Shown here: positions 188 through 49,419 of the stretch, in pieces
How positions within the stretch are numbered: position 1 is the first letter of the stretch
Layout: every line of letters starts with the position of its first letter
IMG/VR virus record: IMGVR_UViG_3300025121_000030
Span: 34,269 to 98,268 of that record
Length of the DNA: 64,000 nt
Reading direction: 5' to 3' (one strand)
DNA from: a virus
Notes under the pieces: generated by a model
Told to the model about the DNA's origin: nothing
Seen by the model: only the letters and a program-made list of their open reading frames with translations
Databases searched by the model: none
Program-made: the position numbers and the translations under genes

Positions 188-216
188 TTGACAAAGTTAT
201 AAAATAATAGTATAAT
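188..216 (+). promoter_or_regulatory. Consensus sigma-A promoter
   Basis: TTGACA at 188-193 and TATAAT at 211-216 are separated by exactly 17 bases, a perfect match to the vegetative sigma-A consensus. Transcription would start near 222-224, so the RNA would begin with the GGGATAG of the structured leader directly downstream. It is placed to serve the endonuclease gene at 333 independently of the head operon. Confidence 0.85.
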
Positions 217-222
217 AATATT

Positions 223-281
223 GGGATAGATAAGGAAGTCATGAGCCTTATTGATAAGAGAATATCCGAGTTCTTTTCCCT
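223..281 (+). ncRNA. Three-helix RNA leader of an endonuclease gene (copy 1)
   Basis: The segment starts with GGGATAG (223-229). It continues with a hairpin ATAAGG/CCTTAT (230-235 with 246-251), a TGAT linker, and a second hairpin AAGAGAA/TTCTTTT (256-262 with 271-277) whose loop holds TATCC. It closes with a TCCC that can pair with the initial GGGA. GGATA of the 5' linker is complementary to TATCC in the second loop, so a pseudoknot is possible. Similar layouts precede five other endonuclease genes in this window (near 12941, 21937, 24079, 29491, 36722). It lies at the predicted 5' end of the RNA made by the promoter at 188. Function unknown; translational control of the nuclease is one possibility. 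Confidence 0.5.
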
Positions 282-332
282 TATTTAAAATTCTCGGAAA
301 ATAAAAATAATTGCTGTCGGAGGTAATAATTA

Positions 333-1991
333 ATGTTGCTAACAAAAGAAGTAGAAATTGGCTTAAGTGGAAGACATATTAAATGGTATAAAAATAAAGG
401 ATATATAATACCAAGGGAAAAAGATAATCAAGGAAGGTTGTCAGTTCCACAGAATACAAAAATATTAGTTAAAGTAGAGGATTTATTAGATAGTTATAAG
501 GTGCAAGTTGATATTGGATGTGATGAGTGTGGAGAATATTTAAAAACAATAGCATTGAATGATTATCGAAAATATATTAAAGACGATGAACAACATTATT
601 GTATAAATTGTTTTAATTCATTATATATTAATGGAATTAAAGCACAAGAAGTTAAGCAAATAATTAATAATAACTTAGGAGATACTTGGAAATTACTTAA
701 TGTTAAAATAATAAATACTCAAATTAATGTAGATTTAATTAATTCGGATGGATATATGTATAGTAAAATTAAAATTTCCAGCATAAAAAAAGGTTATATA
801 CCACAAGGGTTTTATAAATCTAATATATACATATATCAAAATATTAATAATTGGTGTAAAATAAATAATTATAATATTAGATTGAGTGATGAGTACATTG
901 GCTATGATGTAAAACTTAAATGGGAATGTTTAGACTGTAATCATATATTTGAAAGAAGTATGAATGCTATTACACGTGGGCAAGTGGGATGTTCTATTTG
1001 TGGAGATAATATTTCATACCCCAATAAGTTTGGACGTAATTTATTAAACCAATTAAATAATACATACAAATTAAAATATATAAAATTCGAATATTCACCG
1101 GATTGGATTAAACCTAAGAGATATGATAGTTATTTTGAATTTAATAATAAAAAATATATAATTGAAATGGATAGAGCATTGGGACATGGTAATAAAAAAA
1201 CATTAGATGGAACCACCCCTGAAGAATCTCAAGCTATAGATGATTATAAAGATAAAAAAGCAAAAGAACATAATATTAAGATGATTAGAATTGATTGTGT
1301 AAAATCAGATATGAAATATATTAGAGATAATATTTTAGTTAGTGGATTAGCACAGATATTTGATTTATCTAATATTGATTGGTTAAAATGTCATGAGTTT
1401 GCTTGTAACAATTTAGTAAAAGAAACATCTAAATTATGGAATGCTGGAATTAAAAATTCATCAGAAATTAGTGTTATTCTGAACTTAGGAAAGAGAACAG
1501 TTATAAGATATCTTAATGAATGTAGTAAATTGGGGTGGTGTGATTATGATGCCAATGAAATACAAAAAGCAAGTGGGGTAAGATTAGGAAAATCAGGGGC
1601 GAAACCAGTTGTTCAATTGTCGTTAAGTGGTGAATATGTTCAAGAATATAGTAGCATGGTTGAAGCTGAAAAACAAACAGGAATTATTATTATGAGTATT
1701 TCATCTTGTTGCAGAGGTAAATTAAAATCTGCTGGTGGATATCAATGGATGTTTCTTTCAGATTATAATAAAAGCGAAATAAAACAATATAAAAAATCTC
1801 CATATGTTAAAAAAGTTGTTCAACTATCACTAAATAAAGAATATATTTCGGAGTTTGATAGTATTATTGAAGCAGAAAGACAATTAAAAATAAATCATTC
1901 AAATATTTCTTCTTGTTGTCTTGGTAAATATAATCATGCAGGTGGTTTTAAATGGATGTACAAATCAGATTATGAAAAATTAGTTGGATAG
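333..1991 (+). CDS. Homing endonuclease, Vsr/EDxHD-like nuclease with two NUMOD1 repeats
   Basis: This 552-residue protein looks like a free-standing homing endonuclease. Residues 1-95 form a module shared with the proteins at 8989, 29595 and 36842: a GY-IP motif near residue 23, then KVEDLLD, then a zinc-binding pair C63-x2-C66 and C90-x2-C93. A second zinc ribbon lies near residues 195-225 (WECLDC ... CSICG). The nuclease core follows at about 245-330, with YDSYF, then YIIEMDRALGH, then a Lys-rich helix and MIRIDC, the layout of Vsr-like (EDxHD) enzymes. Two NUMOD1 DNA-binding repeats close the protein at about 430-480 and 495-548 (VVQLSL ... SSCC-GK ... GGYQWMF). It sits between the portal and protease genes with its own promoter and terminator. 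The core motif differs from the usual E-x-x-G-x-x-H, so activity is not certain. Confidence 0.75.
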   Translation: MLLTKEVEIGLSGRHIKWYKNKGYIIPREKDNQGRLSVPQNTKILVKVEDLLDSYKVQVDIGCDECGEYLKTIALNDYRKYIKDDEQHYCINCFNSLYINGIKAQEVKQIINNNLGDTWKLLNVKIINTQINVDLINSDGYMYSKIKISSIKKGYIPQGFYKSNIYIYQNINNWCKINNYNIRLSDEYIGYDVKLKWECLDCNHIFERSMNAITRGQVGCSICGDNISYPNKFGRNLLNQLNNTYKLKYIKFEYSPDWIKPKRYDSYFEFNNKKYIIEMDRALGHGNKKTLDGTTPEESQAIDDYKDKKAKEHNIKMIRIDCVKSDMKYIRDNILVSGLAQIFDLSNIDWLKCHEFACNNLVKETSKLWNAGIKNSSEISVILNLGKRTVIRYLNECSKLGWCDYDANEIQKASGVRLGKSGAKPVVQLSLSGEYVQEYSSMVEAEKQTGIIIMSISSCCRGKLKSAGGYQWMFLSDYNKSEIKQYKKSPYVKKVVQLSLNKEYISEFDSIIEAERQLKINHSNISSCCLGKYNHAGGFKWMYKSDYEKLVG

Positions 1992-8988: not shown

Positions 8989-10311
8989 ATGGGATTGATA
9001 AATGAAACAGTGTTAGTTAAGATGAATGGGGTAAATACAAAACATTATGAAAATTTAGGATATATAATTCCGAAGAAAAAACATTCTCAACGAAAAAATA
9101 TTTTAGTATATGATACTACAAACCCCATATTGGTAAAAATTGAAGATTTATTAGATAATAGTCATGCTTTAGTAAATATTGAATGTGATGATTGTGGGAG
9201 AAAAATAGAAAATGTTATATGGCAAGCATATAAAAGATATGTTGGAGAAAATGGTGTATATTATTGTCAAAAATGTGCCAATAAATTATTTAGAAGACCA
9301 ACATATAAAAAAACTAAATTAAAAAACAGCAAATCTTTTGAGCAATGGTGTATTGAAAATAATAAACAGGATATTCTTTTACGTTGGGATTATGAATTAA
9401 ATGATTGCAAGCACAGTGAAATTACATATGGGGTGGATAAAAAATATTATTTTAAATGCCCAATGGGAATACATAAAAGCGAATTAAAACAAATTAATTG
9501 TTTAACAAGTGGACAAGAAGGAAGTATGGATTGTAAACTATGTAATTCCTTTGCTCAATGGGGAATTGATAATTTAGGCGTTGATTTCTTCGAGAAGTAT
9601 TGGGATTGTGAGAAAAATACAATTAATCCTTGGGATATAAGTAAATGTAATAATACAAGAAAAGTTTGGATAAGATGTCAAGAAAAAAAATATCATAATA
9701 ATTATGATATAAGTTGTTATCGATTTATTATGGGTGACAGATGTTCTTATTGTAGTAAACGTGGAGGCAAGGTACATTCATTAGATAGCTTAGGTACATT
9801 ATTTCCAAAATCTTTAGAATTATGGTCTGATAAAAATAAAAAATCGCCATATGAGTATGCACCTAAAAGTGATAAAGAAGTATATTGGAAATGTCCTAAT
9901 GGAAAACATGATGATTATATTAGAGATATTTGTAATTCTAATAAATGTGATTTTAGATGCCCAGAGTGTGCATATTCCAAAGGTGAAGAAAGAATTAGTA
10001 ATTATTTTATAAATAAAAATATAAACTATATTCCACAAAAAGAATTTGATGGTTTAGTTGGATTAAACAATGGTTTATTATCTTATGATTTTTATTTACC
10101 AGAATATGGTCTTATAGAATATCAAGGCGAACAACATGAGAGATATATAAAAGGTTTCCATAAGTCAAAAAAGGATTTTGAAAAACAATTAGAGCATGAT
10201 AGAAGAAAAAGACAATATTGTGTTGATAACAATATAAAATTATTAGAAATTTGGTATTATGACTTTGACAACATCGAATCTATTCTTCAAAGAGAATTAA
10301 ATTTACAATAA
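8989..10311 (+). CDS. Homing endonuclease with zinc ribbons and Vsr/EDxHD-like domain
   Basis: A 440-residue protein with AAAGGAGG before its ATG. Residues 1-100 are the same N-terminal module as in the genes at 333, 29595 and 36842 (GYIIPKK; LVKIEDLLD; CDDC ... CQKC). The middle has three further zinc-ribbon-like units that resemble DUF723/treble-clef repeats (FEQWCIENN ... LRWDYE ... FKCP; LFPKSLELWSD ... YWKCPNGKH). Residues 355-440 hold a Vsr-type nuclease: SYDFYLPEYGLIEYQGEQH followed by a Lys-rich helix and LLEIWYYD. The acidic D-x-E-x-x-G-x-x-H pattern looks intact. It is inserted between two neck genes and lacks the leader RNA seen before most other endonuclease genes here. Confidence 0.8.
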   Translation: MGLINETVLVKMNGVNTKHYENLGYIIPKKKHSQRKNILVYDTTNPILVKIEDLLDNSHALVNIECDDCGRKIENVIWQAYKRYVGENGVYYCQKCANKLFRRPTYKKTKLKNSKSFEQWCIENNKQDILLRWDYELNDCKHSEITYGVDKKYYFKCPMGIHKSELKQINCLTSGQEGSMDCKLCNSFAQWGIDNLGVDFFEKYWDCEKNTINPWDISKCNNTRKVWIRCQEKKYHNNYDISCYRFIMGDRCSYCSKRGGKVHSLDSLGTLFPKSLELWSDKNKKSPYEYAPKSDKEVYWKCPNGKHDDYIRDICNSNKCDFRCPECAYSKGEERISNYFINKNINYIPQKEFDGLVGLNNGLLSYDFYLPEYGLIEYQGEQHERYIKGFHKSKKDFEKQLEHDRRKRQYCVDNNIKLLEIWYYDFDNIESILQRELNLQ

Positions 10312-12901: not shown

Positions 12902-12940
12902 GCAATAGTTAAATTAAATACAGTATAAAAACAATTAATA

Positions 12941-13012
12941 AATAAACAGGGATAGTTAAGAGTTGTGATTTTAATGATAAGAGTGTATCGCAACCTCTCT
13001 TCTCTGTTTATT
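12941..13012 (+). ncRNA. Three-helix RNA before an endonuclease gene (copy 2)
   Basis: An outer stem AATAAACAG/CTGTTTATT (12941-12949 with 13004-13012) encloses GGGATAG, a hairpin TTAAG/TTTAA, the linker TGAT, and a hairpin AAGAG/CTCTT. The two hairpin loops contain GTTGTGA and TCGCAAC, a seven-pair kissing interaction with one G-U. The GGGATAG ... TTAATGATAAGAG ... TATC skeleton matches copy 1 at 223. A T-rich tract follows, so it may also terminate transcription of the tube gene. Confidence 0.55.
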
Positions 13013-13066
13013 TGTTTTTTGTTGCGAAACACTAGTTGTGAGGTGATTATTAATGAGTAATTATTA

Positions 13067-14230
13067 ATGAGTAATTATGTAAAAAGAGATCAAAATGAAT
13101 ATGATAATAATTTTAAAAACATTATTGAAAAATATACTGATCCAAAATATTTAACAACAAAAGGGTTTAGTAGTATGTCTGAAATTTCATCCCATAGTTA
13201 TACTGTAGTTTTTAAGACTAATTGGTATGATTTATTAAAAAAATATGGTGAATTTGACAGGCTTTATCAATATGTTAAAAATGAATTTATTGAGTTTGCA
13301 AAATTAACAAAAATTACAAGTTTAGATAAATTTGTTCAACAGCATACTTGTTTGACTAAAGATTTTTTAAGGTATATAGATAATAAATTATTTAAAGATG
13401 AATGTAAAGTTTCTAAAAAATACACAAAAGAAATGTTGGAAGATAATTTTTCAGATGTAAGGAATAAATTAGGAAGAGTTCCAAATCATTCTGAGTTTAT
13501 TAAAATGAGTAAAATACATCCAAAAACATATAGGCAATTTTTTAATTTGTCTGGTCAAGTATGGGAAGATATTTTAAGGTATTTTGTTTCTGAAGAAGAA
13601 ATTAATGAGTTTAATACATATCAAGCAGAATACAGAAAACAAATTGCTATTGCAGCTTCACAAAAGGAATATATTTATTCTAATGAAGAATTAGAGAAAG
13701 AATTAAAAATAATTTTTGATTATTATTACAAAGAATTTAATGTATATCCTAGTAGAAGACTATTTAATAAGATATCTAAATTCCATGATTTACTATATCG
13801 TGAAAGATTTAATATGAAATGGTCAGAAGTATGTAAAATGTATGGATATGAAATAGATACAAATAACAGCAAGTCAGAGAAAATATTTTTACAATTGGTT
13901 GATGAATTATTAAAAAGTAAGAATAAAACACAGAAAACCTTTGATTGGTTAAGAAATGAAGCAGGAAACAAATTAAAAATAGATGGATTCTATCAAGATT
14001 ATAATCTTGCAATAGAGTTTGATGGTGTTCATCATAGGAAGCCAGTGGCAAATTATGGTGGTATGGAGAGATACTTAAAGCAAGTTGCTAATGACAAAAT
14101 AAAAGATGATTTAATTCCACAACATGGATTAAAATTAATTCGTATTGACAGTCGTGAATCTTGGCATGACAAAGATTATCTTAAACAAAGATTAATAGAT
14201 GCTGGAATAGAGATTCCACAAATAGCATAA
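13067..14230 (+). CDS. Homing endonuclease, Vsr/EDxHD-like, downstream of the intron
   Basis: A 387-residue protein. The C-terminal 85 residues are a Vsr-type nuclease: KIDGFYQDYNLAIEFDGVHH, then a Lys/Asp helix (VANDKIKDDLIPQHGL) and KLIRIDSRESWHD, with the D, E and HH positions intact. The N-terminal 300 residues are helical with repeated units of about 60 residues (GEFDRLYQYVK; LGRVPNHSEFIKMSKIHPKTY; YNVYPSRRLFNKIS-like), probably DNA-binding. It lies 166 bases downstream of the intron-split tube gene, so it may cut near the intron insertion site. The start ATG 13067 overlaps the stop of a four-codon frame made by a 14-base duplication; the ribosome binding site GAGGTG (13039-13044) is better spaced for the first ATG at 13053. 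Confidence 0.75.
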   Translation: MSNYVKRDQNEYDNNFKNIIEKYTDPKYLTTKGFSSMSEISSHSYTVVFKTNWYDLLKKYGEFDRLYQYVKNEFIEFAKLTKITSLDKFVQQHTCLTKDFLRYIDNKLFKDECKVSKKYTKEMLEDNFSDVRNKLGRVPNHSEFIKMSKIHPKTYRQFFNLSGQVWEDILRYFVSEEEINEFNTYQAEYRKQIAIAASQKEYIYSNEELEKELKIIFDYYYKEFNVYPSRRLFNKISKFHDLLYRERFNMKWSEVCKMYGYEIDTNNSKSEKIFLQLVDELLKSKNKTQKTFDWLRNEAGNKLKIDGFYQDYNLAIEFDGVHHRKPVANYGGMERYLKQVANDKIKDDLIPQHGLKLIRIDSRESWHDKDYLKQRLIDAGIEIPQIA

Positions 14231-16624: not shown

Positions 16625-19600
16625 GTGATGGCAGATATGAAATTAGATAAAGGCAGACTATATTCACGTCTGCCAAACAATACTTATACTTCTTCATTAT
16701 TAAGGGGGACTATATATACTTTTATTTGGCATAAAATTGAAGTGACTTTTTTTACACAAACAAATAAAAAAGTTACAAAAACGATATCGGTATTAAGGCA
16801 AACATTTAGAAGGATTTTTGATATTTTTAAAGGAAAGACTATTAGAAGACTTACTCAAGAAATATCAAATACAAATCAAACCAATAGAATTAACGATATC
16901 TTGTCAGACACTTCAATACAAACTCATAAGAACAATGTTGGTTTTGTCACATTTTTTGGTAGTAATTATAGAAAAATAATACAATTAATTTTACATACAT
17001 ATCAAACTGTAAAGTCAAATAATAAATTGGTTGATTTTATAAGTCAAACATACCGTAAAATTCCATATATATTTAAAGGAAAAACGATAAGAAAATTAAC
17101 GCAACAGATATTTATTACTAGACAAACTAATAAAATTAATAATAAATTACTTACTATGTTTATGCAAACTAAAAGGAATAATAATATTTTATATAATATT
17201 GTAAAAAATACAAGTAGGAAAATTATTTCTTTATCATCTAAAATAAGTCAAAATATAAGAATAGTTACAAAAATATTACATAAATATTTTCAAACAAATC
17301 GTAGAGTAAACTATATTAATATTTTTATTGGTAATGGTTATAGAAAGTTAATTAATTTAGTTTTAAGGCATAATCAAACTATAAAAATTAACAATAAACT
17401 AATTGATATATTGCAACAAACATATCGTAAAATACCTGATATATTTTTTGGAGATACATTTAGAAAATTAACACAAATAGATTCATCTTTGTTTCAAACT
17501 AATAAAAATATAAATAAAACGTCTGTAGTTTTATCTCAATCTAAACGCAATATTATAGGGCTGATTAGTAATAAGATACAAAATAATAGAAGTATTGTTA
17601 AATTGAATTATATTGGTAGTCAAATAAAAAGGAATATTATAGAATTAAGTGAATCAACAAAGCAGACATATAGAAGAATTAACAACATATTTGTATTTAG
17701 CATACAAACAAATAGAAAAATTAATAGTTTGGTTATTTTTTATGTTCAATCAAACAAAAAAATAAATAAATTAATTAGTTCATTTCATCAATCTGTAAGA
17801 TATAATATGATCATAGTTTATTGTATTAATCAAATTAAAAGAGATATAAATAAATTATATTTTATTAATAAGCAGATAAAAAGGAATATTTTAGAGTTTA
17901 TTGTTAATATTGTTCATACTAAGAGAAATATTAATAAGATTATCATTATTATGAATCAGTTGAATAGGAATATTGAATTATTTAAAGTATTGTTAAAACA
18001 AACTTATAGAATGATAACATTATTATATTTAAATAAATATCAAACTATAAAAACCAATAATAAATTAATTAATATATTGAGGCAAACATACAGGAAGATT
18101 CCAGATGTGTTTTCAGGAGACACAATAAGAAGATTAACAAAACCAAGTTCAGTTTTATTGCAAACAAGTAAAAATATTGAAAAGATTTTTATAATTTCAT
18201 CTCAGACTAAGCGAAATATTGTAAAATTACTTAGTAATAAAACACAACACAATAGAGGAATTATTAACAAAATAAGTATTAGCAAACAAACTAAACGTAA
18301 TATTACTAAATTGATAAGTACGAGCATGGTTAGTGTATATGGGCAATTAATTCGTAAGGTTAATGAATTGGTTGATTACTTTAGTCATGGTAAGCGTAAT
18401 ATTTTGAATATCGTATGTGTTTATTGGCAGACAAAAAGAAATAATGGTGTATTGAGTTATTATACTATCCAAAGCAAGAGAAATATTTATAAATTAGCAA
18501 GTTATGTCAGTCAAGTTTGTAGAATTATTTCAAAAGATATTAATATCATCAATCAATTAAACAGGCATATTAATAAATTAGAAGATTTTATTGGTAATAA
18601 TTTAAGAAAAATCAATAAAGCATCTTATAATATTGGACAAATGAATAGACAAATTATTTCATTTATATCTAATAACATCCAATTAAATAGAAATATAAAT
18701 AAGATAATCAATATTAGTAAGCAAGTGTTTAGAAATATTGTTGAATTAATTGTAGTTATTAAGCAAACTAATATGAAAAACGTTATATTTATAGCATTAA
18801 ATAAACAAACAAGTAGAATATTGAATAAAATTTCTATTGTTAATAAACAAATTATTAGAAATATTTATGATTTAACATTAATCAGTAAACAAACTAATAG
18901 AAAAACTACTTTGTTTACTGATTTAAATAAGCAAATTAATAGGATAGTTAATAAATTAGTAAGTAGTAAGAATCAAACTAAACGAGATATAAATAAGATT
19001 TATGATTATATTGTTCAAGTGAATAGAAATATTACAAAATTCTTATCTGAAATTTATATACAACTTGAGAGATTTCTTTTAATTAAAGTTGAATCTATAA
19101 AGCAAACTAAGCGAAGTATTACTAGATTAATAAGTAATTATGAAATTACAAAGGTGCTTATTCAGATTGTTAGAAAAGTTGAACCATTAGTTTCATATAT
19201 TGGACAGAGTAAGCTAAATATTATTAAAATGATTAGTGATATTAGACAACAGAATAGATTAATAAATAAACTAGAAAGTTTTGTTTATCAAAGCAAAAGA
19301 GCAAGAATTTTGTTAACTGAAACAAAGAAGCAGAGTTTAAGAAATATTTTATTATTGGTATATTCTATTAATCAAAGTTGGAGAAACGTTTTAAAAATTA
19401 CAGTAAAGTTATATCAGAAGAAGCGCAATATTATTAAACTAGTTAAATACAACTTACAAAGTAATAGAGATATTATTAAACTAAAGTTTAAAGTATGGCA
19501 AACAAACAGAGATATTATTAAATTGTTTGGGCGTGTAAAACAAAGCATTAGAGATATTATAAAAATATCTTCTATTAAAGGACAACAAAAAAGAAATGTA

Positions 19601-20479
19601 ATTAGATTTGAGGAGTATTTAAAACAGATCGAAAGGAATGTAATAAAATTAACTGTTTTTATAAAACAGAATTATCGTAAAATATTCAAATTAGAATTTA
19701 TTACAAAAGGAAGCAAACGAGACATAATTAAGTTGGTTAAATATAATGGTCAGTCAAATAGAGATGTTAGGAAAATTGTGTCAGATTATTATACTCAAAT
19801 CAAACGTAATATTATTGAATTGATAAGTTTTAAAAATCAGACTAATAGAAAAATTAATAAGATTTCGAGTTACATTACACAAACCAAGAGAAATATAAAC
19901 GAATTTATTATTTCTACAATTCAAACAAATAGAGATATTATAAAAATTTTATTAATTTCTGTTCATTTTAAAAGAAATATTTTAAAAATTATTTATATTA
20001 GTAAGCAAATAAAGAGGAATATTATTGTATTAATTAGTGCTGATGCGATTGTTGAAGCATTTATTCAATTGATTAGGAAAATTAATAAGATAGTATTTAA
20101 TGTAGTACAAAGTAAACGAAATATTATTAAATTATATGATATTAATAAACAAACGAAAACTAATATAAATAAACTACAAAGTTTTATTAAACAACAAAGA
20201 AGAAATATTGTTTTATTGGTAATAAGAGAATATCAAACTAATAGAAATATTTTATTATTGGTAGAGATTTTAAAACAAAGCAAGAGAAATATATTAAAAC
20301 TAATTTCACCAATTCGTCAATTAATCAGAAAGCTTATAACTATATGGGATGTATTTGATTTTGATTTGTTTGATGTGGTAGAGTTGGAGTTAGATTTTTA
20401 TGTTGAAGAATTAAAGTTGGATTTATGTATGTATGAAATTCCTCTTGATATTGAAGTTGAGGAGGTTAAAAGGTTATGA
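16625..20479 (+). CDS. Giant basic repeat protein built from about 70 copies of a 16-residue unit
   Basis: Candidate starts are GTG 16625, ATG 16628 and ATG 16637; the last is best spaced from AAGGCGG. After about 40 residues almost the whole 1284-residue protein is a 16-17 residue repeat of the type xxxQTKRNIxKLISxx. Four longer blocks carry older-looking units: NNKLIDILxQTYRKIPDIF followed by GDTFRKLT. The GDTxRKL form is the same unit as in the acidic protein at 26630, so the two share an origin. The repeat region is dominated by Lys, Arg, Asn, Ile and Gln and should be extremely basic, while the last 45 residues are acidic (DFDLFDVVELELDFYVEELK). It lies in a block of virion surface genes and is coupled to the next gene by ATGA. 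Function unknown. Confidence 0.7.
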   Translation: MMADMKLDKGRLYSRLPNNTYTSSLLRGTIYTFIWHKIEVTFFTQTNKKVTKTISVLRQTFRRIFDIFKGKTIRRLTQEISNTNQTNRINDILSDTSIQTHKNNVGFVTFFGSNYRKIIQLILHTYQTVKSNNKLVDFISQTYRKIPYIFKGKTIRKLTQQIFITRQTNKINNKLLTMFMQTKRNNNILYNIVKNTSRKIISLSSKISQNIRIVTKILHKYFQTNRRVNYINIFIGNGYRKLINLVLRHNQTIKINNKLIDILQQTYRKIPDIFFGDTFRKLTQIDSSLFQTNKNINKTSVVLSQSKRNIIGLISNKIQNNRSIVKLNYIGSQIKRNIIELSESTKQTYRRINNIFVFSIQTNRKINSLVIFYVQSNKKINKLISSFHQSVRYNMIIVYCINQIKRDINKLYFINKQIKRNILEFIVNIVHTKRNINKIIIIMNQLNRNIELFKVLLKQTYRMITLLYLNKYQTIKTNNKLINILRQTYRKIPDVFSGDTIRRLTKPSSVLLQTSKNIEKIFIISSQTKRNIVKLLSNKTQHNRGIINKISISKQTKRNITKLISTSMVSVYGQLIRKVNELVDYFSHGKRNILNIVCVYWQTKRNNGVLSYYTIQSKRNIYKLASYVSQVCRIISKDINIINQLNRHINKLEDFIGNNLRKINKASYNIGQMNRQIISFISNNIQLNRNINKIINISKQVFRNIVELIVVIKQTNMKNVIFIALNKQTSRILNKISIVNKQIIRNIYDLTLISKQTNRKTTLFTDLNKQINRIVNKLVSSKNQTKRDINKIYDYIVQVNRNITKFLSEIYIQLERFLLIKVESIKQTKRSITRLISNYEITKVLIQIVRKVEPLVSYIGQSKLNIIKMISDIRQQNRLINKLESFVYQSKRARILLTETKKQSLRNILLLVYSINQSWRNVLKITVKLYQKKRNIIKLVKYNLQSNRDIIKLKFKVWQTNRDIIKLFGRVKQSIRDIIKISSIKGQQKRNVIRFEEYLKQIERNVIKLTVFIKQNYRKIFKLEFITKGSKRDIIKLVKYNGQSNRDVRKIVSDYYTQIKRNIIELISFKNQTNRKINKISSYITQTKRNINEFIISTIQTNRDIIKILLISVHFKRNILKIIYISKQIKRNIIVLISADAIVEAFIQLIRKINKIVFNVVQSKRNIIKLYDINKQTKTNINKLQSFIKQQRRNIVLLVIREYQTNRNILLLVEILKQSKRNILKLISPIRQLIRKLITIWDVFDFDLFDVVELELDFYVEELKLDLCMYEIPLDIEVEEVKRL

Positions 20480-21906: not shown

Positions 21907-21936
21907 TAAGTTTAATTAAATATAAAGTTTATTTTT

Positions 21937-22002
21937 AGAAGGGTAAGTTCGGGAGTTATAAACCTGAATGAATCGCAAAACTCCGATTGCGATACCCCTT
22001 CT
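21937..22002 (+). ncRNA. Three-helix RNA before a GIY-YIG gene (copy 3)
   Basis: An outer stem AGAAGGG/CCCTTCT encloses the linker TAAG, hairpin B (TTCGG with CCTGAA), the linker TGA, and hairpin C (ATCGCAA with TTGCGAT). The loop of B contains GGAGTT and the loop of C contains AACTCC, an exact six-base kissing pair. The outer stem is followed by a T-rich tract, so termination is also possible. The copy at 24079 has the same outer stem and the same AACTCC loop, but different and compensated bases in hairpin C. Confidence 0.6.
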
Positions 22003-22051
22003 ATTTTTATTTGTCTATTTATCGGAGAAAATTAAGACGGAGGTTGATTAA

Positions 22052-23242
22052 GTGAGTGATGAATTAAAGGGTAAAAGTGGTATTTATAAGATTGTAAATT
22101 TGGTTAATGGAAAGTTATATGTTGGGAGTACAGTTAATTTATATAATAGAAAATCTCAGCATTTTAGTAGTCTTATGACAAATTGTCATAAAAATCCGTA
22201 TTTACAAAATGCATTTAATAAATATGGAATTAATACTTTTAAATTTGAAGTATTAGAATATGTAGAAGATGTTGATAAGTTAATAGAACGAGAACAATAT
22301 TATTTAGATATTTATTTTGATAATAAAAATAAGTGTTATAATGTTTTACCAACGGCAGGTTCCCCATTGGGTGTAAAACATTCTGATGAAACGAAATTAA
22401 AGTTAGCAATTACTGGAGGAGCAAAACCTTTTTATGTTTTTAAAGACAGAGAGTTTATAGGAGAATGGATAAATTCATCAGAATGCAGTAGAAATTTAGA
22501 TATAAATTATTCTGGTTATATTCGTAAGTGTTTAAAAGGTAAACAAAATATGTTTAATGGTTATATTTTTATTTATAAGGATGAATATAACGAAGATAAA
22601 TTAAAAGAAATTTATGAAATGGTTGAGTCAAAACCGTTTTTAGTTTTTGAAAAATATACAGAAAATTTTATTGGAGAATATGACACAATAAATAAATGCA
22701 TGATAGATTTAAATATAAATATAAAAAGCGATGGTGATATTAGGAAATATTTAAAAGATAAAACTTATTCTGTGAATAATTATATTTTTATATATAAACA
22801 TGAATATGCAGAAGATAAAGTAAAAGAATTATGTAATATAAACTTAAATGCCAAGCCATTTTATGTTTATAAAAAAGATGATAAAAAATTTGTTGGTAAG
22901 TTTAGTTTGCAACAAGAATGCGCAAAAGAATTAAATATAGACGCATCTAATATTAGTGGTTGTTTAAGAAAAAAACATTATTTTGCAAAAGGATATGTTT
23001 TTATTTATGAAGAAGATTATTCTGAAGAAAAATTAAATGAATTATGTAATAAAACTCAAAGTTTAAAATTTTTGAAATATGAATTTGAGGTACATGAAAA
23101 AAATACAAACAAATTTATAGGTATTTATGATAGCCAAGTAGATTGCGCTAATGAATTAGGATTAAACCATAAAAGTATTAGTAATTGCCTTTGTGGAAAA
23201 CAAATATCAACTGGTGGTTATATTTTTGAAAAAGTTTCTTAA
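22052..23242 (+). CDS. GIY-YIG homing endonuclease with NUMOD repeats
   Basis: GTG start at 22052 with GACGGAGG upstream. Residues 8-95 are a GIY-YIG nuclease domain: SGIYKIVNLVNGKLYVGST, then NRKSQH with the catalytic Arg, and later IEREQYYLD with the catalytic Glu. A NUMOD3-like element follows (LGVKHSDETKLKLA). Four C-terminal units of about 65 residues resemble NUMOD1 (KPFYVF-KD ... EFIGEW ... CSRNLDIN ... CLKGKQ ... GYIFIYKDEY). The protein has 396 residues. The gene lies between two paralogous surface genes (20794 and 23282), so it may cut intergenic or paralog sequence and drive conversion among them. Confidence 0.85.
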   Translation: MSDELKGKSGIYKIVNLVNGKLYVGSTVNLYNRKSQHFSSLMTNCHKNPYLQNAFNKYGINTFKFEVLEYVEDVDKLIEREQYYLDIYFDNKNKCYNVLPTAGSPLGVKHSDETKLKLAITGGAKPFYVFKDREFIGEWINSSECSRNLDINYSGYIRKCLKGKQNMFNGYIFIYKDEYNEDKLKEIYEMVESKPFLVFEKYTENFIGEYDTINKCMIDLNINIKSDGDIRKYLKDKTYSVNNYIFIYKHEYAEDKVKELCNINLNAKPFYVYKKDDKKFVGKFSLQQECAKELNIDASNISGCLRKKHYFAKGYVFIYEEDYSEEKLNELCNKTQSLKFLKYEFEVHEKNTNKFIGIYDSQVDCANELGLNHKSISNCLCGKQISTGGYIFEKVS

Positions 23243-23281
23243 TTAAGATATAAAAATAAATTTGAGAGGAGTGAAATAAAT

Positions 23282-24043
23282 TTGGCTTATCATATAGCAA
23301 TTTATCGTGACAATCCTACCGTAAACTTAACTGATGGAACAATAGTTTCAGAGAATGATTTTTCTAACCCGGTTGATTCAAATCACATATCTATTCCAGC
23401 AACAGGGAGTACAAATGGTAACTGGGTGAAACTTGCTGTACGTTGCGATGAAGGAACAGAAACTATTTTTGACTTAAATCGTCACGCTAGGATCAGTTTA
23501 GATGGTTCTGGCAATACAAATTGGCAACTAGCTGAAGATAATAGTGGTTCTCCATCAAGTACACCACTAGATTGGGGATTACCTTTAGACATAACAGAAA
23601 TTATAACTGATACTAACTATATATTCTGGACTCGTGCAAAAGCAAATTCCACTGAAAGCGTTTCTAATGACACTTCAATTGAAATAATTGCACAGGCTTT
23701 AGTAGGTAATCAGCCTTGGACTTGGAACATATCTGACATGAGTGTAGTAGAAGGGATAGGAGAAGCAACTGAGTCTATTATAATACCAGAAGATTGTACT
23801 TTATATTATACTGTAACAGGGGATATGCCAACTTTTGCAGTTTATACTGTTGGTGGAGATGCATTAAATGGTTGGATAATATGGATTTCTAATTACGATG
23901 TTAGAACATTTAGTTTTATTAAAGATCAAGTGGTTGCTGTATCAATATTATATTCTAATTCTGGAACTACTGGTACTCATATAATAAGAGAAAACGATGA
24001 GAATGGAAGAATAATTGCACAGTTTAATGTAACATGTACATAA
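23282..24043 (+). CDS. Virion surface protein with domains A-B
   Basis: TTG start at 23282 after GAGAGGAGTG, the same start context as at 20794. The 253-residue product has domain A (WQLAEDNSGSPSSTPLDWGL; NYIFWTRAKANSTESV) and domain B (PWTWNISDMSVVEG ... IPEDCTLYYTVTGD). It stops where domain C would begin, so it is the A-B form of the A-B-C protein at 20794. Residues 150-155 (NQPWTW) mark the domain boundary, and the C-terminal strand IIRENDENGRIIAQF aligns with LFLNNENGKEL of 20794. Confidence 0.6.
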   Translation: MAYHIAIYRDNPTVNLTDGTIVSENDFSNPVDSNHISIPATGSTNGNWVKLAVRCDEGTETIFDLNRHARISLDGSGNTNWQLAEDNSGSPSSTPLDWGLPLDITEIITDTNYIFWTRAKANSTESVSNDTSIEIIAQALVGNQPWTWNISDMSVVEGIGEATESIIIPEDCTLYYTVTGDMPTFAVYTVGGDALNGWIIWISNYDVRTFSFIKDQVVAVSILYSNSGTTGTHIIRENDENGRIIAQFNVTCT

Positions 24044-24078
24044 AAAATATTGAAAACAGAATATAAAAGTTTATTTTT

Positions 24079-24141
24079 AGAAGGGTAAGTTTGAGATTAG
24101 CTGTCTTAGACGATGCACAAAACTCCAATTGTGTCCCTTCT
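24079..24141 (+). ncRNA. Three-helix RNA before a GIY-YIG gene (copy 4)
   Basis: The outer stem AGAAGGG/CCCTTCT is identical to copy 3. Hairpin B is GTTTGAGA with TCTTAGAC, the linker is CGA, and hairpin C is GCACAA with TTGTGT around an AACTCC loop. Compared with copy 3, the bases of both inner hairpins differ but pairing is kept, which is covariation evidence for a real RNA fold. The kissing loop seen in copy 3 is not obvious here. The preceding 20 bases are also nearly identical to those before copy 3. Confidence 0.6.
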
Positions 24142-24207
24142 ATTTTTATTTGTGTAAAAATATGTGAGTTTTGGAGAAATCAAATTTATGGAGGTTGATT
24201 GTATTAA

Positions 24208-25341
24208 ATGAGTGATGAAGTAATGTTTGGTAGTATTTATAAGATAACTAATAAAATAAATAATAAGGTTTATATTGGGCAAACTGTACAGCCATTAAAT
24301 TATAGATGGACAGGACATTGTTCTAATGCAAATATGGGAATAGATACTCATTTTTGTCGTGCAATACGCAAATATGGTAAAGATAATTTTATAATTGAAG
24401 AAATTGAAAAAGTTTCTATCGACCAATTAGATGATGTAGAAATAAAATGGATTGCTTATTATGATAGTTATAATAATGGTTATAACAGTACATTAGGTGG
24501 TGGAGGCAATAAGGGTTGTGACTTAGATGAATCTGAAGTTATTGATCATTATTTAAAATGTAAAAATGCGTATATAACAGCGGAGTTTTTTGGATGTAGC
24601 ATAAGTCCAATATATAGTATATTACGTAAAAATGGTATTAAAAATAAAGATTTAGACCATGATGAAGTGATTAAATATTATTTAGATTGTAGGTCAACTT
24701 TTAAAACAGCAGAGTTTTTTGGTGTTAATGATGAAACAATTCGTAAAATTCTTGTTAAAAATGATATAAAAAGAGATGGTCATACTAGATATGATTTAGA
24801 TGAAGAAGAGATAATAAATTATTATTTGGAATGTAAATCAATAGAAGATACTGTAAAACATTTTGGGCACTATCATGAAGCTATAAGTAAAATTCTTAAT
24901 AATAATAATATTGAAAGACTTAGAAAAACACGATCACGTTTCATATGGGATGAAAATGGAAATAAAAAATATCTAAATGAAGAAGAAGTGATTAATTATT
25001 ATCTTGATTGTAGATTAATATATAAAACTGCTGAATATTTTAAATGTTGTTTAAAAGCTGTAAGTGATATTCTCAACAATAATAATGTAGACAGATCAGA
25101 AGATTCTATATCAGTATATGCCATAGATAAAAATGGTAATAGATATGATTTTGATGATATTAAAGATGCTGTTGATTATTTAATTAAAAATGGTAATTCA
25201 AAGATTATTAGTAGACCAAAAGAGAATGCATATAAACAAGCAATTAATAAAACCGCAAGAGGAGAAAAGAAAACTGCATATGGTTTAAAGTGGTATTACA
25301 AAGAAAATAATGAAGATACTTTATTAGAAAATGTAATTTGA
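24208..25341 (+). CDS. GIY-YIG homing endonuclease with helix-turn-helix repeats
   Basis: ATG at 24208 with GGAGG upstream. Residues 7-95 form the nuclease: GSIYKITNKINNKVYIGQT, NYRWTGH, and IEIKWIAYYDS-like with the acidic residue before NGYNSTLGG. Residues 105-290 hold four helix-turn-helix-like repeats of about 45 residues (EEVINYYLDCRLIYKTAEYF ... ILNNNNV), each probably contacting DNA. The C-terminus has a short NUMOD-like unit (YAIDKNGNRYDFDDIKDAVD ... GLKWYYK). The total is 377 residues. The gene lies between surface paralogs 23282 and 25384, the counterpart of the gene at 22052, but its DNA-binding part is of a different kind. Confidence 0.85.
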   Translation: MSDEVMFGSIYKITNKINNKVYIGQTVQPLNYRWTGHCSNANMGIDTHFCRAIRKYGKDNFIIEEIEKVSIDQLDDVEIKWIAYYDSYNNGYNSTLGGGGNKGCDLDESEVIDHYLKCKNAYITAEFFGCSISPIYSILRKNGIKNKDLDHDEVIKYYLDCRSTFKTAEFFGVNDETIRKILVKNDIKRDGHTRYDLDEEEIINYYLECKSIEDTVKHFGHYHEAISKILNNNNIERLRKTRSRFIWDENGNKKYLNEEEVINYYLDCRLIYKTAEYFKCCLKAVSDILNNNNVDRSEDSISVYAIDKNGNRYDFDDIKDAVDYLIKNGNSKIISRPKENAYKQAINKTARGEKKTAYGLKWYYKENNEDTLLENVI

Positions 25342-36721: not shown

Positions 36722-36793
36722 ATAAGAGATAGGTTAAGACTGATCATCTTAATCGAAAAGAGTGGATATCCTTGTAACTCCACTCTTCTTTTA
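36722..36793 (+). ncRNA. Three-helix RNA before an endonuclease gene (copy 6)
   Basis: An outer stem ATAAGA/TTTTAT encloses GAGATAGG, a hairpin TTAAGA/TCTTAA, the linker TCGA, and a hairpin AAGAGTGG/CCACTCTT. The loop of the second hairpin contains TATCC, and GATA of the linker can pair with TATC, as in copy 1. A T-rich tract follows. A weak promoter (TTGACT at 36680) may lie upstream. Confidence 0.55.
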
Positions 36794-36841
36794 TTTTAAA
36801 AAAAACAAGGAAAACAATAAAACATCAAGGAGTGGATATAA

Positions 36842-38305
36842 TTGGGATTGGTAAGTACAGAAGTTTGGGTTGGTTTAAATGGAAGTAGTATTAAACATTT
36901 TGAAGAAAAGGGATATGAAATACCTAGATATAAAAATAAAAATAGCAAATTATGTGTTAAAGAACATACAAAAATATTAGTAAAAATTAAAGATTTATCA
37001 GAACATAGTAATGTCAAAGTTGATGTAGAATGTGACGGATGTGGTAAAAAATTAAAAAACGTAGTATGGCAGGATTATTTAAAACGTATTGTTAAAAATG
37101 ATGGTAAATATTATTGTTTACAATGTGCAACTAAGGATAATGGAATTCAAACTAGACTTAAAGAAAATGAAATCAGAAATATAGTAGATGAAAAACTAGG
37201 AAAAGATTGGATAATAGAAAAAATTGAAATAATAAAAAATAATACGTTTATAACTTTAATTGACCCTGATGGATATTGGTATAGCAATGTAAAAACACGA
37301 GTTATAAAAAGAGACATATTCCCTAGAAAATTTCATTTACAAAATATATATGCAAAACAAAATGTGAATAATTGGTTTAAATTAAATAATTTGAATATGA
37401 AATTAATTGAAGAATACAAAGGAACAACCAAAAAAGTTAAAATTAAATGCTTAGAATGCAATAATTCTTTTAAACGCTCATTCGATAGTATTAAAAGTGG
37501 AATAACATCGTGTCCAAATTGTAGTGATGGTATTAGTTACCCGGAAAAATTAGGGAATTCATTTTTTAATCAAATAGGTATTAATTATATTTATAATTCT
37601 AAATTAAAATGGTCTGAAAATAAAAAATATGATTTTACATGTGAAGGCTTTAAAATTGTGGTTGAAATGCATGGTTTACAACATTATGAAGAAACCAATT
37701 GGGGGAATACGGGTGCAAGAACTTTAAAAGAAGAACAAGAAAGCGATAGATTAAAAAAAGAATTAGCAGAGAAAAATGGATATAAATATATAGAAATTGA
37801 TTGTAGAAAATCAGATTTAGATTGGATAAAGAATAGTATTATGAATAGTGAATTAGCTAATATATTTGATTTATCTAAAATAAATTGGTTACAATGTCAT
37901 GAATATGCTTGTAGTAGTTTGGTTAAAGTAGCATGTGATTTGTGGAATAATTGTGTAGAAAACACAATGAAAATTGGGGAAATAATGCAATTACATAATT
38001 CCACCATTTCAAAATATTTAAAACAAGGTGTAAAATTAGGTTGGTGTGATTACAATGTAAAAAAAATAAAAAATAATAATGGTAAAAAAATTAGTAATTT
38101 TGCAAAAATAAAATTTAGTAAGTCAGTAGTTCAATTAGATTTAAATGATAATTTTATTAAAGAATTTGAAAGTGGTACAGAAGCAGGAAGACAAACAGGA
38201 ATAAAGCAAGCTACCATTTCTTTATGTTGTAGAAAAGCTCCTCATGCAAAAACGGCAGGTGGATATAAATGGATGTTTAAGAATGATTATAATTTAATTA
38301 GTTAA
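36842..38305 (+). CDS. Homing endonuclease, Vsr/EDxHD-like with one NUMOD1 repeat
   Basis: TTG start at 36842 after AAGGAGTGG. The 487-residue protein is close to the gene at 333 along its whole length but has one NUMOD1 repeat instead of two. The N-terminal module (GYEIPRY; LVKIKDLSE; CDGCGKKL ... CLQC) is followed by a zinc ribbon near 205-230 (IKCLECNNSFKRS ... CPNCSDG). The nuclease core is KKYDFTCEGFKIVVEMHGLQ followed by HYEETNWG and YIEIDCRKSD. Here the E-M-H-G-x-Q-H motif is complete, unlike in the protein at 333. NUMOD1 lies at 425-480 (VVQLDLNDNFIKEFES). It is inserted between agrB and the XhlA-like gene. Confidence 0.8.
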   Translation: MGLVSTEVWVGLNGSSIKHFEEKGYEIPRYKNKNSKLCVKEHTKILVKIKDLSEHSNVKVDVECDGCGKKLKNVVWQDYLKRIVKNDGKYYCLQCATKDNGIQTRLKENEIRNIVDEKLGKDWIIEKIEIIKNNTFITLIDPDGYWYSNVKTRVIKRDIFPRKFHLQNIYAKQNVNNWFKLNNLNMKLIEEYKGTTKKVKIKCLECNNSFKRSFDSIKSGITSCPNCSDGISYPEKLGNSFFNQIGINYIYNSKLKWSENKKYDFTCEGFKIVVEMHGLQHYEETNWGNTGARTLKEEQESDRLKKELAEKNGYKYIEIDCRKSDLDWIKNSIMNSELANIFDLSKINWLQCHEYACSSLVKVACDLWNNCVENTMKIGEIMQLHNSTISKYLKQGVKLGWCDYNVKKIKNNNGKKISNFAKIKFSKSVVQLDLNDNFIKEFESGTEAGRQTGIKQATISLCCRKAPHAKTAGGYKWMFKNDYNLIS

Positions 38306-47825: not shown

Positions 47826-48060
47826 GTCAACAGCCCACGAGCCTAAAGGCATCGGGGCTTGTAGGAGATAATATCAATTACAAGTCAGTTGAATAGCCTA
47901 AGTATTTGATTACTACGTTATATAAGAATATATAGTTACCTACGGATACTTCTCTAGTCTGTAGCTCTAAGCTTTAATATTAAACATTTCTAAGGGTAGG
48001 AGAAGTGTATTAAAGATTTAAAACCTTATATAACATTGGCGAAGAGAACTTACTCTGAAA
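47826..48060 (+). ncRNA. Omega-RNA (HEARO) of IscB
   Basis: The 250 bases before iscB contain GTCAACAGCCCACGAGCC, the nested stem AGCCC/GGGGCT with GCCTAAAGGC inside, and later ATAGCCTAAG and GTAGGAGAAG-type segments. This is the HEARO pattern of a structured RNA directly upstream of an IscB-type gene with HNH. In known systems the guide lies at its 5' end and derives from sequence flanking the transposon, here the endonuclease remnant (about 47800-47825). Confidence 0.75.
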
Positions 48061-48072
48061 GGAGGACATAAC

Positions 48073-49419
48073 TTGAGAGTATATGTCAAAAATTTAAGAA
48101 ACGAACCATTAATGCCTTGCTCTGAACAAAAAGCAAGAAAATTATTAAAAGAAAAGAAGGCAAAAGTTATTGAAATTAAACCTTTTACAATTAAATTATT
48201 ATTTCCAACAGGAGAAGCAAAACAAGAAATTATACTTGGAATTGATAGTGGTTATATGAATATTGGTTTTAGTGCAATAACTGAAAAGAGAGAATTAATT
48301 TCTGGTGAAGTTAAACTTCTTCAAGGTATGAAAGAAAGATTACTAGAAAGATCAAGATACAGAGGAATTAGACGGTCAAGATTAAGATACAGAAAAGCAC
48401 GATGGAGTAATAGAACTAAATCAAAACCAAAAGGTTGGCTTGCTCCTAGCTTGCAACATAAATTAGATTCTCATATTAAATTTATAGATAGTTTATATAA
48501 GATATTACCAATAACCAAATGCATTATTGAAGTAGCAAATTTTGATATTCAAAAGATGAAGAACGATACTATTAGTGGTAAAGAATATCAACAAGGTGAT
48601 ATGATAGGATTTTGGAATACTAGAGAATATGTTCTTCATAGGGACAATCATAAATGTCAAAATCCTAATTGTACTAACAAAGATAAAAAACAAATATTAG
48701 AAGTACATCATATTAAATTTAAACATTTAGGTGGTACTGATGCTCCAAGTAATTTAATAACTTTATGCAATAAATGTCATACATCACCTAATCATAAAAA
48801 GGGTAAGTTTCTATATGATTGGTGCATTGAAGGTAAGAAAGTTAGAGGATTTAAGGATGCTACTTTTATGAGTATGGTTAGATGGTATTTAGTTAATCAG
48901 TTAAAAGAATTACATGAAAATATCAATGTAACATATGGTTATATAACTAAGAATCATAGGATAGAAAACAAGATTGAAAAAACTCATTACAATGATGCAT
49001 TTGCAATTACTAAAGGTATTAATCAAGTTAGAAGCACTAAAATACATGAAGTTAAGCAGTCAAGAAGAAATAATAGAAGCTTAGAAATGTTTTATGATGC
49101 GAAGTACACTGATACAAGAAATGGTGAAAAAGTAAGTGGTGGAGATTTGAATAATGGAAGAAGAACAAGGAATAAGAATTTAAACTCTGAAAATCTTCAT
49201 CAATATAGAGGTGAAAAACTATCAAAAGGACAAAGAAGAATAAGAAAGGTTAGATATTTTTATCAACCAAATGATTTGGTTAAATATGATGGAAAAGTAT
49301 ATACAGTAAGAGGAACTCAAAATGGTGGAGCATATATAAGATTAAATGAAATTAAAAAAGTACCTAGAGTTAATTTATTAATTCCTTATAAATTCAATAA
49401 AGGGATAGTGTGGTGTTAA
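48073..49419 (+). CDS. iscB: IscB RNA-guided nuclease
   Basis: A 448-residue protein with all IscB parts in order. They are the PLMP motif near residue 12 (PLMPCSEQKARKLLKEKKAK), RuvC-I Asp58 in GIDSG, an Arg-rich bridge helix (about 86-115, RYRGIRRSRLRYRKARW), RuvC-II Glu153 (CIIEVANFD), HNH (LEVHHIKFKHLGGTDAPSNL with His212/213 and CNKCH), and RuvC-III His305 and Asp308 (THYNDAFAI). All expected catalytic residues are present, so it looks active. IscB uses the omega-RNA to cut DNA matching the guide and is the ancestor of Cas9. The start is the TTG at 48073 after GAAAGGAGG. It overlaps tnpA by TAATG. Confidence 0.9.
   Translation: MRVYVKNLRNEPLMPCSEQKARKLLKEKKAKVIEIKPFTIKLLFPTGEAKQEIILGIDSGYMNIGFSAITEKRELISGEVKLLQGMKERLLERSRYRGIRRSRLRYRKARWSNRTKSKPKGWLAPSLQHKLDSHIKFIDSLYKILPITKCIIEVANFDIQKMKNDTISGKEYQQGDMIGFWNTREYVLHRDNHKCQNPNCTNKDKKQILEVHHIKFKHLGGTDAPSNLITLCNKCHTSPNHKKGKFLYDWCIEGKKVRGFKDATFMSMVRWYLVNQLKELHENINVTYGYITKNHRIENKIEKTHYNDAFAITKGINQVRSTKIHEVKQSRRNNRSLEMFYDAKYTDTRNGEKVSGGDLNNGRRTRNKNLNSENLHQYRGEKLSKGQRRIRKVRYFYQPNDLVKYDGKVYTVRGTQNGGAYIRLNEIKKVPRVNLLIPYKFNKGIVWC

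What the first reader, a model, noticed from the sequence alone, without database searches (positions are those of the whole stretch)
21937..24141. Two near-identical three-helix RNAs with covarying stems precede two different GIY-YIG endonuclease genes
The segments at 21937-22002 and 24079-24141 share the outer stem AGAAGGG/CCCTTCT, the linker TAAG and the loop AACTCC. The inner stems differ in sequence but keep pairing (ATCGCAA/TTGCGAT against GCACAA/TTGTGT; TTCGG/CCTGAA against GTTTGAGA/TCTTAGAC). Compensated changes are strong direct evidence of a conserved RNA fold. In the first copy the loops GGAGTT and AACTCC can kiss. The downstream endonucleases have unrelated DNA-binding parts, so the RNA is not just copied along with one gene. 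The RNA could act as a terminator, a translational switch for the nuclease, or a separate RNA parasite.
Basis: partly seen in the sequence, partly recalled or inferred. Interest (0 to 1): 0.75.

Follow-up and report, generated by a model that had tools for sequence, protein, structure and literature searches.

The report
Dimer-prone RNA leader on phage nucleases
A small folded RNA at the front of mobile DNA-cutting genes in phages keeps its shape, a self-pairing loop and a built-in block for the ribosome landing site even when its letters change, which points to a shared and so far undescribed switch that controls these selfish genes.

Summary
The two RNAs are real, and they are two of at least 41 copies of an RNA family with no Rfam match. 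The window holds five copies (219-323, 12940-13043, 21936-22043, 24078-24194, 36722-36831). Each lies just upstream of a homing endonuclease gene. The genes belong to unrelated classes: GIY-YIG, HNH and Vsr-like.

All copies share a three-way junction P1-P2-P3. In a 33-sequence alignment every one of the 20 stem pairs has compensated changes. (1) The P3 loop pairs with a purine-rich strand downstream, forming a pseudoknot. (2) The same loop also matches the gene's own Shine-Dalgarno (SD) site, which often repeats that strand. Both matches are specific to each copy (0 of 20,000 permutations). (3) The P2 loop holds a self-complementary six-base word (27 of 29 distinct hairpins exactly palindromic), as in the HIV-1 dimerisation loop.

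A related phage lacks leader and nuclease at both sites, so they move together. It is not a terminator, and the kissing loops proposed for copy 1 are not conserved. Best reading: a mobile translational-control leader whose anti-SD loop chooses between a decoy and the true SD, probably as a homodimer. Fold and pairings are shown by covariation; switching and dimerisation are inferred.

The parts
21936..22003 (+). Leader e1, three-way junction: P1 21936-21943/21996-22003, J1/2 UAA 21944-21946, P2 21947-21953/21963-21969, J2/3 GAA 21970-21972, P3 21973-21978/21987-21992
   Evidence: fold z -3.5; covariation; coordinates checked
21956..21961 (+). e1 P2-loop palindrome UUAUAA (loop AG-UUAUAA-A), predicted homodimer kissing site
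   Evidence: 27 of 29 distinct P2 hairpins carry an exact six-base palindrome at this place
21979..21986 (+). e1 P3 loop AACUCCGA, anti-SD-like, pairs with PK' or SD
   Evidence: own-partner permutation test
22022..22027 (+). e1 pseudoknot strand PK' UCGGAG (decoy SD)
   Evidence: complementary to the P3 loop, compensated in e2
22037..22043 (+). e1 Shine-Dalgarno ACGGAGG, alternative partner of the P3 loop (CUCCG/CGGAG)
22052..23242 (+). GIY-YIG homing endonuclease with NUMOD1/I-HmuI-like repeats
   Evidence: Pfam
24078..24142 (+). Leader e2, three-way junction; P2 loop 24096-24104 AU-UAGCUG-U (self-complementary with GU), P3 loop 24121-24128 AACUCCAA
24171..24176 (+). e2 pseudoknot strand UUGGAG
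24189..24194 (+). e2 SD UGGAGG, alternative partner (CUCCA/UGGAG)
24208..25341 (+). GIY-YIG homing endonuclease with HTH_28-type repeats
   Evidence: Pfam
12940..13013 (+). Leader e4: P1 12 bp; P2-loop word UUGUGA 12963-12968 (self-pairs with GU); P3 loop 12984-12996
   Evidence: structure-only scan, R2/R3
13021..13043 (+). e4 pseudoknot strand GUUGCGA 13021-13027 and SD with near-repeat GUUGUGAGG 13035-13043
13067..14230 (+). Vsr-like (PD-(D/E)XK-type motif) homing endonuclease with HNH_repeat
   Evidence: Pfam (below its cut-off), PHROG homing endonuclease, motif
36722..36794 (+). Leader e5: P2-loop palindrome UGAUCA 36741-36746; P3 loop 36766-36779
   Evidence: top hit of structure-only scan, R2/R3
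36805..36831 (+). e5 pseudoknot strand ACAAGGA 36805-36811 and SD repeat CAAGGA 36826-36831
36842..38305 (+). Vsr-like homing endonuclease with DUF4379 zinc finger and NUMOD1
   Evidence: Pfam
188..216 (+). sigma-70 consensus promoter TTGACA-17-TATAAT of leader e6; predicted start at P1 (223)
   Evidence: sequence
219..280 (+). Leader e6: short P1 GGG/CCC, P2-loop palindrome UCAUGA 239-244, P3 loop UAUCCGAG 263-270
   Evidence: R2/R3
293..323 (+). e6 pseudoknot strand CUCGGA 293-298 and SD UCGGAGG 317-323
333..1991 (+). Vsr-like homing endonuclease with DUF4379 zinc finger and NUMOD1
   Evidence: Pfam

Best explanation
The element is the 5' leader of mobile homing-endonuclease cassettes and controls translation of the nuclease. 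It folds as a three-way junction (P1, P2, P3). The P3 loop is a private anti-Shine-Dalgarno sequence with two mutually exclusive partners on the same mRNA: a decoy strand (PK') shortly after P1, which forms a pseudoknot and leaves the SD free, and the true SD, whose capture would block initiation. PK' is transcribed first, is usually the longer match, and would be the default. The P2 loop carries a six-base palindrome in a retroviral-DIS-like format (usually two bases, palindrome, one base), so two copies of the same leader can kiss. The likely use is to bias the PK'/SD choice and cap nuclease output as its mRNA accumulates. Shown: the three helices, the L3-PK' and L3-SD complementarities, the palindrome, the link to nuclease genes, and joint presence or absence of leader and nuclease at two sites. 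Inferred: that the two L3 pairings switch, that dimers form in cells, and which state is ON.
For: Helices: all 20 pairs with two-sided changes over 33 distinct copies, 0 of 500 shuffles. L3 matches its own PK' region: observed 395 against permuted 251 +/- 13, 0 of 20,000. L3 matches its own SD region: 360 against 261 +/- 13, 0 of 20,000 (23 unique loops). SD often repeats PK': L262 AGGTTGAT twice, L265 GGATTGAT twice, L266 GTAGGAA twice, e4 GTTGCGA/GTTGTGA. Computed duplex energies of the two pairings are of similar size. P2-loop palindrome in 27 of 29 distinct hairpins, the other two self-complementary with GU, binomial p 5e-34. Six later hits, found by a model that does not encode palindromes, show TCATGA, TCGCGA, TAATTA, TCATGA, TAATTA and one four-base GGCC (read by eye). 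Same leader before GIY-YIG, HNH and Vsr-like nucleases. Relative L053 lacks leader and nuclease at both e1 and e2 sites and has a third leader plus nuclease elsewhere.
Against: No experiment. Several SD matches are only 4-5 bp and could reflect that SD and PK' are both purine-rich, although the permutation test removes the general effect. In L270 the match to PK' is only 4 bp (read by eye). Many palindromes are A/U-only and would be weak in trans at low mRNA concentration. One leader precedes a primase-like gene (L266) and one has no ORF of length behind it (L306). Loops, hexamers and some stem limits were set by hand, start codons by a simple rule. Copies within related phages are not independent.
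Confidence: 0.62

Rival explanations
1. A block against 5'-3' mRNA decay: the three-way junction plus loop/downstream pseudoknot forms a barrier, like flavivirus xrRNAs, that stops RNase J and protects the nuclease mRNA after processing or from its own start site.
For: Same topology as xrRNAs (three-way junction, P3 loop pairing with a downstream strand); a flaviviral xrRNA stops bacterial RNase J1 in vitro, and some flaviviral xrRNAs may pair an apical loop with sequence about 30-40 nt downstream (PMC5760640). In e6, e7 and L171 a consensus or near-consensus promoter places the start at or near P1.
Against: Does not explain why the P3 loop covaries with the SD or why the P2 loop is palindromic. 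Copies e1, e2 and e5 are preceded by U-rich sequence rather than a clear promoter. The conserved xrRNA core nucleotides were not tested for.
Confidence: 0.15
2. A simple pseudoknot without switching: PK' and SD resemble each other only because both are purine tracts or because PK' is a ribosome standby site; L3 binds PK' as a structural element and dimerisation is incidental.
For: PK' is the better match in most copies; L270, L236, L258 and L171 have short SD matches; purine tracts are common upstream of genes.
Against: Own-SD matching exceeds all 20,000 permutations, and unusual SDs (GGTTGAT, GGATTGAT, GTAGGAA, GGCGG) follow the loop.
Confidence: 0.15
3. An unrecognised ribozyme or ligand-binding riboswitch whose core is the UAA/AUA and GAA/GAU junction strands.
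For: Junction strands are conserved in sequence; three-way junctions with pseudoknots occur in both kinds of RNA.
Against: Few conserved unpaired bases compared with the known small ribozymes (own knowledge); no Rfam match even at relaxed thresholds; the linked gene is a nuclease rather than a metabolic gene.
Confidence: 0.05
4. An intrinsic terminator, or a folded DNA feature recognised by the nuclease during homing.
For: P1 is followed by U-rich sequence in many copies; P2 is an inverted repeat.
Against: No terminator-like site found (though that scan allows only loops of 3-8 bases); the Lietuvens copy has no U-run; L053 has a separate terminator-like hairpin before the leader; arms and palindrome are off-centre, so not one DNA palindrome; SD covariation points to mRNA.
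Confidence: 0.03

Closest known systems
RBS-sequestering RNA structures of T-even phage homing endonucleases (I-TevI, I-TevII, I-TevIII, segB, mobE; PMC2988022)
   Same: Leader structure of a phage homing endonuclease gene that can hide its ribosome binding site.
   Different: Those are described as RNA structures that sequester the RBS, tied to early, middle or late promoters. Here a conserved three-way junction shared by unrelated nucleases uses a loop with a decoy partner and a self-pairing loop.
HIV-1 dimerisation initiation site (DIS; PMC7357161)
   Same: Six-base palindrome in an apical loop with unpaired flanking bases; a 5' leader.
   Different: Retroviral genome dimerisation, GC-rich palindrome, strictly conserved purine flanks; here a phage mRNA leader, mostly A/U-rich palindromes, flanks not all purines.
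Flaviviral exonuclease-resistant RNA (xrRNA; PMC5760640)
   Same: Three-way junction whose P3 loop pairs with a downstream strand.
   Different: No evidence of exonuclease function here; linked to an SD and to nuclease genes; conserved xrRNA nucleotides not tested for.
HEARO / IsrB omega RNA (RF02033)
   Same: Structured RNA directly upstream of a nuclease ORF in the same phage (window 47826-48053).
   Different: RF02033 is a model of 211 positions tied to one nuclease family; the leader does not match RF02033.
GOLLD, ROOL, OLE ornate RNAs (PMC12286853, abstract only)
   Same: Natural bacterial RNAs that form homo-oligomers.
   Different: Large RNAs; here about 65 nt plus 20-60 nt, in an mRNA leader.

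Membership tests
Any Rfam 15 family | Score at or above a family's gathering threshold | tested here: not met
   Only HEARO at 47826-48053 in the window; relaxed scans of e1/e2, e4 and e7 give only chance-level matches
T-even phage homing-endonuclease RBS structures | Leader structure that can sequester the nuclease SD | tested here: met
   L3-own SD complementarity, 0 of 20,000 permutations; pairing itself not shown in vivo
T-even phage homing-endonuclease RBS structures | Late promoter placed so that late transcripts lack the sequestering structure | tested here: inconclusive
   e6, e7 and L171 have promoters at the start of P1, so the whole leader is in the transcript; other copies show no clear promoter
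HIV-1-type DIS kissing loop | Six-base palindrome in an apical loop | tested here: met
   27 of 29 distinct hairpins, 2 more with GU; 5 of 6 later hits
HIV-1-type DIS kissing loop | Conserved purines flanking the palindrome | tested here: not met
   Flanks are AG, AAG, AC, AT, GC, TC before and A, G, T or C after
HIV-1-type DIS kissing loop | Dimer formation | not testable with these tools
   Needs native gels or ultracentrifugation
Flaviviral xrRNA | Three-way junction with P3 loop/downstream pseudoknot | tested here: met
Flaviviral xrRNA | Conserved junction C and pairing of the 5' end with the junction that forms the ring | not tested
   Not examined; junction strands here are UAA/AUA and GAA/GAU
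Flaviviral xrRNA | Stops a 5'-3' exonuclease | not testable with these tools
   Needs RNase J1 assay
Intrinsic terminator | GC-rich hairpin directly followed by a U-run in all copies | tested here: not met
   Lietuvens copy has no U-run; no terminator-like site at e1/e2

The most novel reading that the evidence does not exclude
A phage mRNA leader that works as a dose sensor by homotypic mRNA dimerisation: each leader recognises only its own kind through a private palindromic kissing loop, and the dimer shifts a private anti-SD loop from a decoy to the true SD, so a selfish nuclease limits its own translation as its mRNA, or that of a co-infecting phage with the same element, accumulates. Distinct leaders in one genome rarely share a palindrome (2 coincidences against 6.6 expected, p about 0.02, relatedness not fully removed).
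Probability: 0.35. Interest if true: 0.93.

Novelty: new variant of a known kind. Interest (0 to 1): 0.82.

Why it matters
It is a previously undescribed RNA family, as far as Rfam and the papers searched show, carried by homing endonucleases of unrelated classes: a regulatory module that travels with selfish genes rather than with one protein family. The review consulted says functional RNA oligomers have rarely been observed in nature (PMC7357161); a leader with a strongly conserved palindromic loop in about 40 copies makes the question directly testable in a small RNA of about 100 nt. It also offers a bistable ribosome-site switch in which loop, decoy and SD all vary together. An isolated phage (Sporosarcina phage Lietuvens) carries it, and the leader can be tested in reporters in Bacillus subtilis.

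Tried and rejected
Exact DNA patterns of the first copies in IMG/VR gave only near-identical contigs, the L053 copy and chance hits. Homologues of HEG1 and HEG2 by single sequence gave only near-identical contigs. The 80 GIY-YIG loci from the wider search carry no leader above noise apart from the known ones, so the leader is not a general GIY-YIG feature. blastn of leaders against GenBank phages gave only weak short hits, one of which (H117, Lietuvens) proved real with R3. A scan of 391 genomes of the class of Clostridium sardiniense with R3 found nothing, but only 13 candidates per genome were scored, so it shows nothing. Staphylococcus, Bacillus, Enterococcus and Enterocloster phages with related endonucleases had no match. 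Terminator reading rejected. Kissing of P2 and P3 loops in copy 1 rejected as not conserved. Model hits L250-L254, L263, L264, L307, L308 and the weak minus-strand hit at window 59349 were judged noise.

Full report
1. Observation. The two segments are present as described and each folds into a three-helix junction better than nearly all shuffles. Pairs in P2 and P3 that differ between the copies are compensated. The flanks are shared as well (AAAGTTTATTTTT before, ATTTTTATTTG after, GGAGGTTGATT, and the first codons after the start), so the copied unit is the whole 5' leader. Rfam has no match at gathering or relaxed thresholds.

2. A third copy and empty sites. A relative phage (L053, IMGVR_UViG_3300024999_000049) has an 86%-identical tail gene. 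Where the window has e1+HEG1 and e2+HEG2 it has short empty junctions (L053 7107-7125 and 7889-7931), and it carries a homologue of HEG1 (61% identical) with its own leader at another place, L053 4656-4718, where the window has only 28 bp. Leader and nuclease therefore come and go as one cassette. The third leader keeps the flanks and junction but has different, still paired, P2 and P3. It sits just behind a separate terminator-like hairpin.

3. More copies. A covariance model of three copies (R1) gave weak hits in the window that proved to be the same architecture before other homing endonucleases. A structure-only scan with no sequence terms ranked four intergenic leaders at the top of the 98 kb record, all before homing endonucleases, and R1 found another in the relative phage. 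Model R2 from seven copies separates those members (40-61 bits) from noise (18 bits) in 644 kb. It then found leaders before Vsr-like nucleases in loci fetched by protein similarity and, in whole virus records, at many places not chosen by the query protein. A blind DNA pattern scan of IMG/VR added three independent ones, each before a nuclease: L270 GIY-YIG, L273 HNH, L275 HNH-repeat-like by my reading. Model R3 added six more, including one in an isolated phage, Sporosarcina phage Lietuvens (MT104122.1, 3187-3252), directly before its HNH endonuclease gene and after the terminase gene.

4. Statistics of the fold. On 33 distinct copies (A11) 93.9% of cells are paired and all 20 pairs have two-sided changes; no shuffle of 500 reaches any of the five measures, and sliding partners destroys the signal. 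The alignment was fitted to the model, and the seed alignments were trimmed or padded by hand in loops and one linker, but RNAalifold on the final alignment predicts the same helices.

5. Pseudoknot and SD. In copy 1 the P3 loop CUCCGA is complementary to UCGGAG at 22022-22027; in copy 2 CUCCAA to UUGGAG at 24171-24176. The other copies have quite different words that still match: UCGCAAC/GUUGCGA (e4), UCCUUGU/ACAAGGA (e5), AUCAACCUA/UAGGUUGAU (L262). The SD of the following gene often repeats the same word. For 23 unique loops the match to the own downstream strand totals 395 against 251 +/- 13 in permutations, and to the own SD region 360 against 261 +/- 13; none of 20,000 permutations reaches either. 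Computed duplex energies of the two pairings are similar in size, PK' usually the stronger. The simplest mechanism is a loop that can hold either a decoy or the true SD. That it switches is inference.

6. The self-pairing P2 loop. The P2 loop is usually two or three bases, a six-base palindrome and one base. Palindromes seen are UAAUUA, UCAUGA, UAGCUA, UUAUAA, UGAUCA, UUGCAA and UCGCGA, all of the form U....A. 27 of 29 distinct hairpins are exact and two self-pair with GU. Of the six later hits, five have a palindrome and one a four-base GGCC. None of the models encodes this. A hexamer in a 9-base loop cannot pair with itself within one molecule beyond its outer base pair, so the covariation implies pairing between two copies, as in the HIV-1 dimerisation loop (PMC7357161). 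Unlike that loop the flanking bases are not always purines. Distinct leaders in one genome share a palindrome less often than expected (2 against 6.6, p about 0.02); earlier, with fewer copies, the count was 0 against 4.3. This is suggestive only, since relatedness is not fully removed.

7. What follows the leader. GIY-YIG (e1, e2, e3, L246, L270), Vsr-like nucleases with DUF4379 zinc fingers and/or NUMOD1 (e5, e6, e7, L171, L208, L207, L241, L249 and others), HNH_repeat types (e4, L269), HNH (L248, L259, L273, Lietuvens), and a family matching phrog_4538, mostly with homing-endonuclease PHROGs (L261, L262, L267, L166; L265 matches phrog_4538 only). The Vsr-like assignment, and HNH for L248 and L273, rest partly on my reading of sequence motifs. 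Exceptions: L266 precedes a protein I read as primase-like, and L306 has no long ORF behind it. L183, L168 and L256 gave no intact ORF at the expected start.

8. Transcription context. e6, e7 and L171 have consensus or near-consensus sigma-70 promoters whose start falls at or near P1. For e1 and e2 no clear promoter or terminator was found. Some leaders may therefore be 5'-terminal and others inside operons.

9. Comparison with what is known. T-even phages keep some homing endonucleases off early by RNA structures that hide the RBS (PMC2988022), so translational control of such genes is a known kind; this architecture was not found in the passages read there. The topology is that of flaviviral xrRNAs, one of which stops RNase J1 in vitro (PMC5760640), which keeps a decay role open as the first rival. 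I found no paper describing this RNA, within a library that lacks most subscription journals.

10. Judgement. The RNA family, its helices, the pseudoknot, the SD match, the palindrome and the cassette-level link to nucleases are well supported by sequence. The switch and the dimer in cells are inferred. No experiment was possible.

Noticed in passing
window 47826-49419: HEARO RNA (RF02033, E 8e-31) directly upstream of an RRXRR/HNH ORF (IsrB-like), so the same phage carries a second kind of RNA-nuclease pair.
   Followed up: no
L266 1501-1566 (G083, IMGVR_UViG_3300028864_000016): A leader with palindrome, pseudoknot and repeated SD word before a primase-like gene instead of a nuclease; possibly co-opted or left after loss of a nuclease.
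   Followed up: partly
L306 1501-1559 (G023): Leader with all features but only a ten-codon ORF behind it: an orphan leader, perhaps after deletion of the nuclease.
   Followed up: partly
window 13045-13070: A 14-nt tandem duplication (ATTATTAATGAGTA) around the start codon of ORF 13067 puts a four-codon ORF between the SD and the real start.
   Followed up: no
G000 9198-10070 (outside the window): A further GIY-YIG ORF in the same phage has a promoter-like sequence but no leader of this family.
   Followed up: partly
L053 8418-10165: A serine-recombinase and TnpB-like gene pair (IS607-like, by my reading) inserted next to the same tail genes in the relative phage.
   Followed up: no
window 16625-20479: ORF of 1284 aa made of many short degenerate repeats (roughly I.LI..QT.RNI), with a shorter homologue in L053.
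   Followed up: no
L241, L166, L269 (G009, IMGVR_UViG_3300025030_001185): Three leaders with three different palindromes in one 24 kb contig, with terminator-like hairpins just upstream of some.
   Followed up: partly
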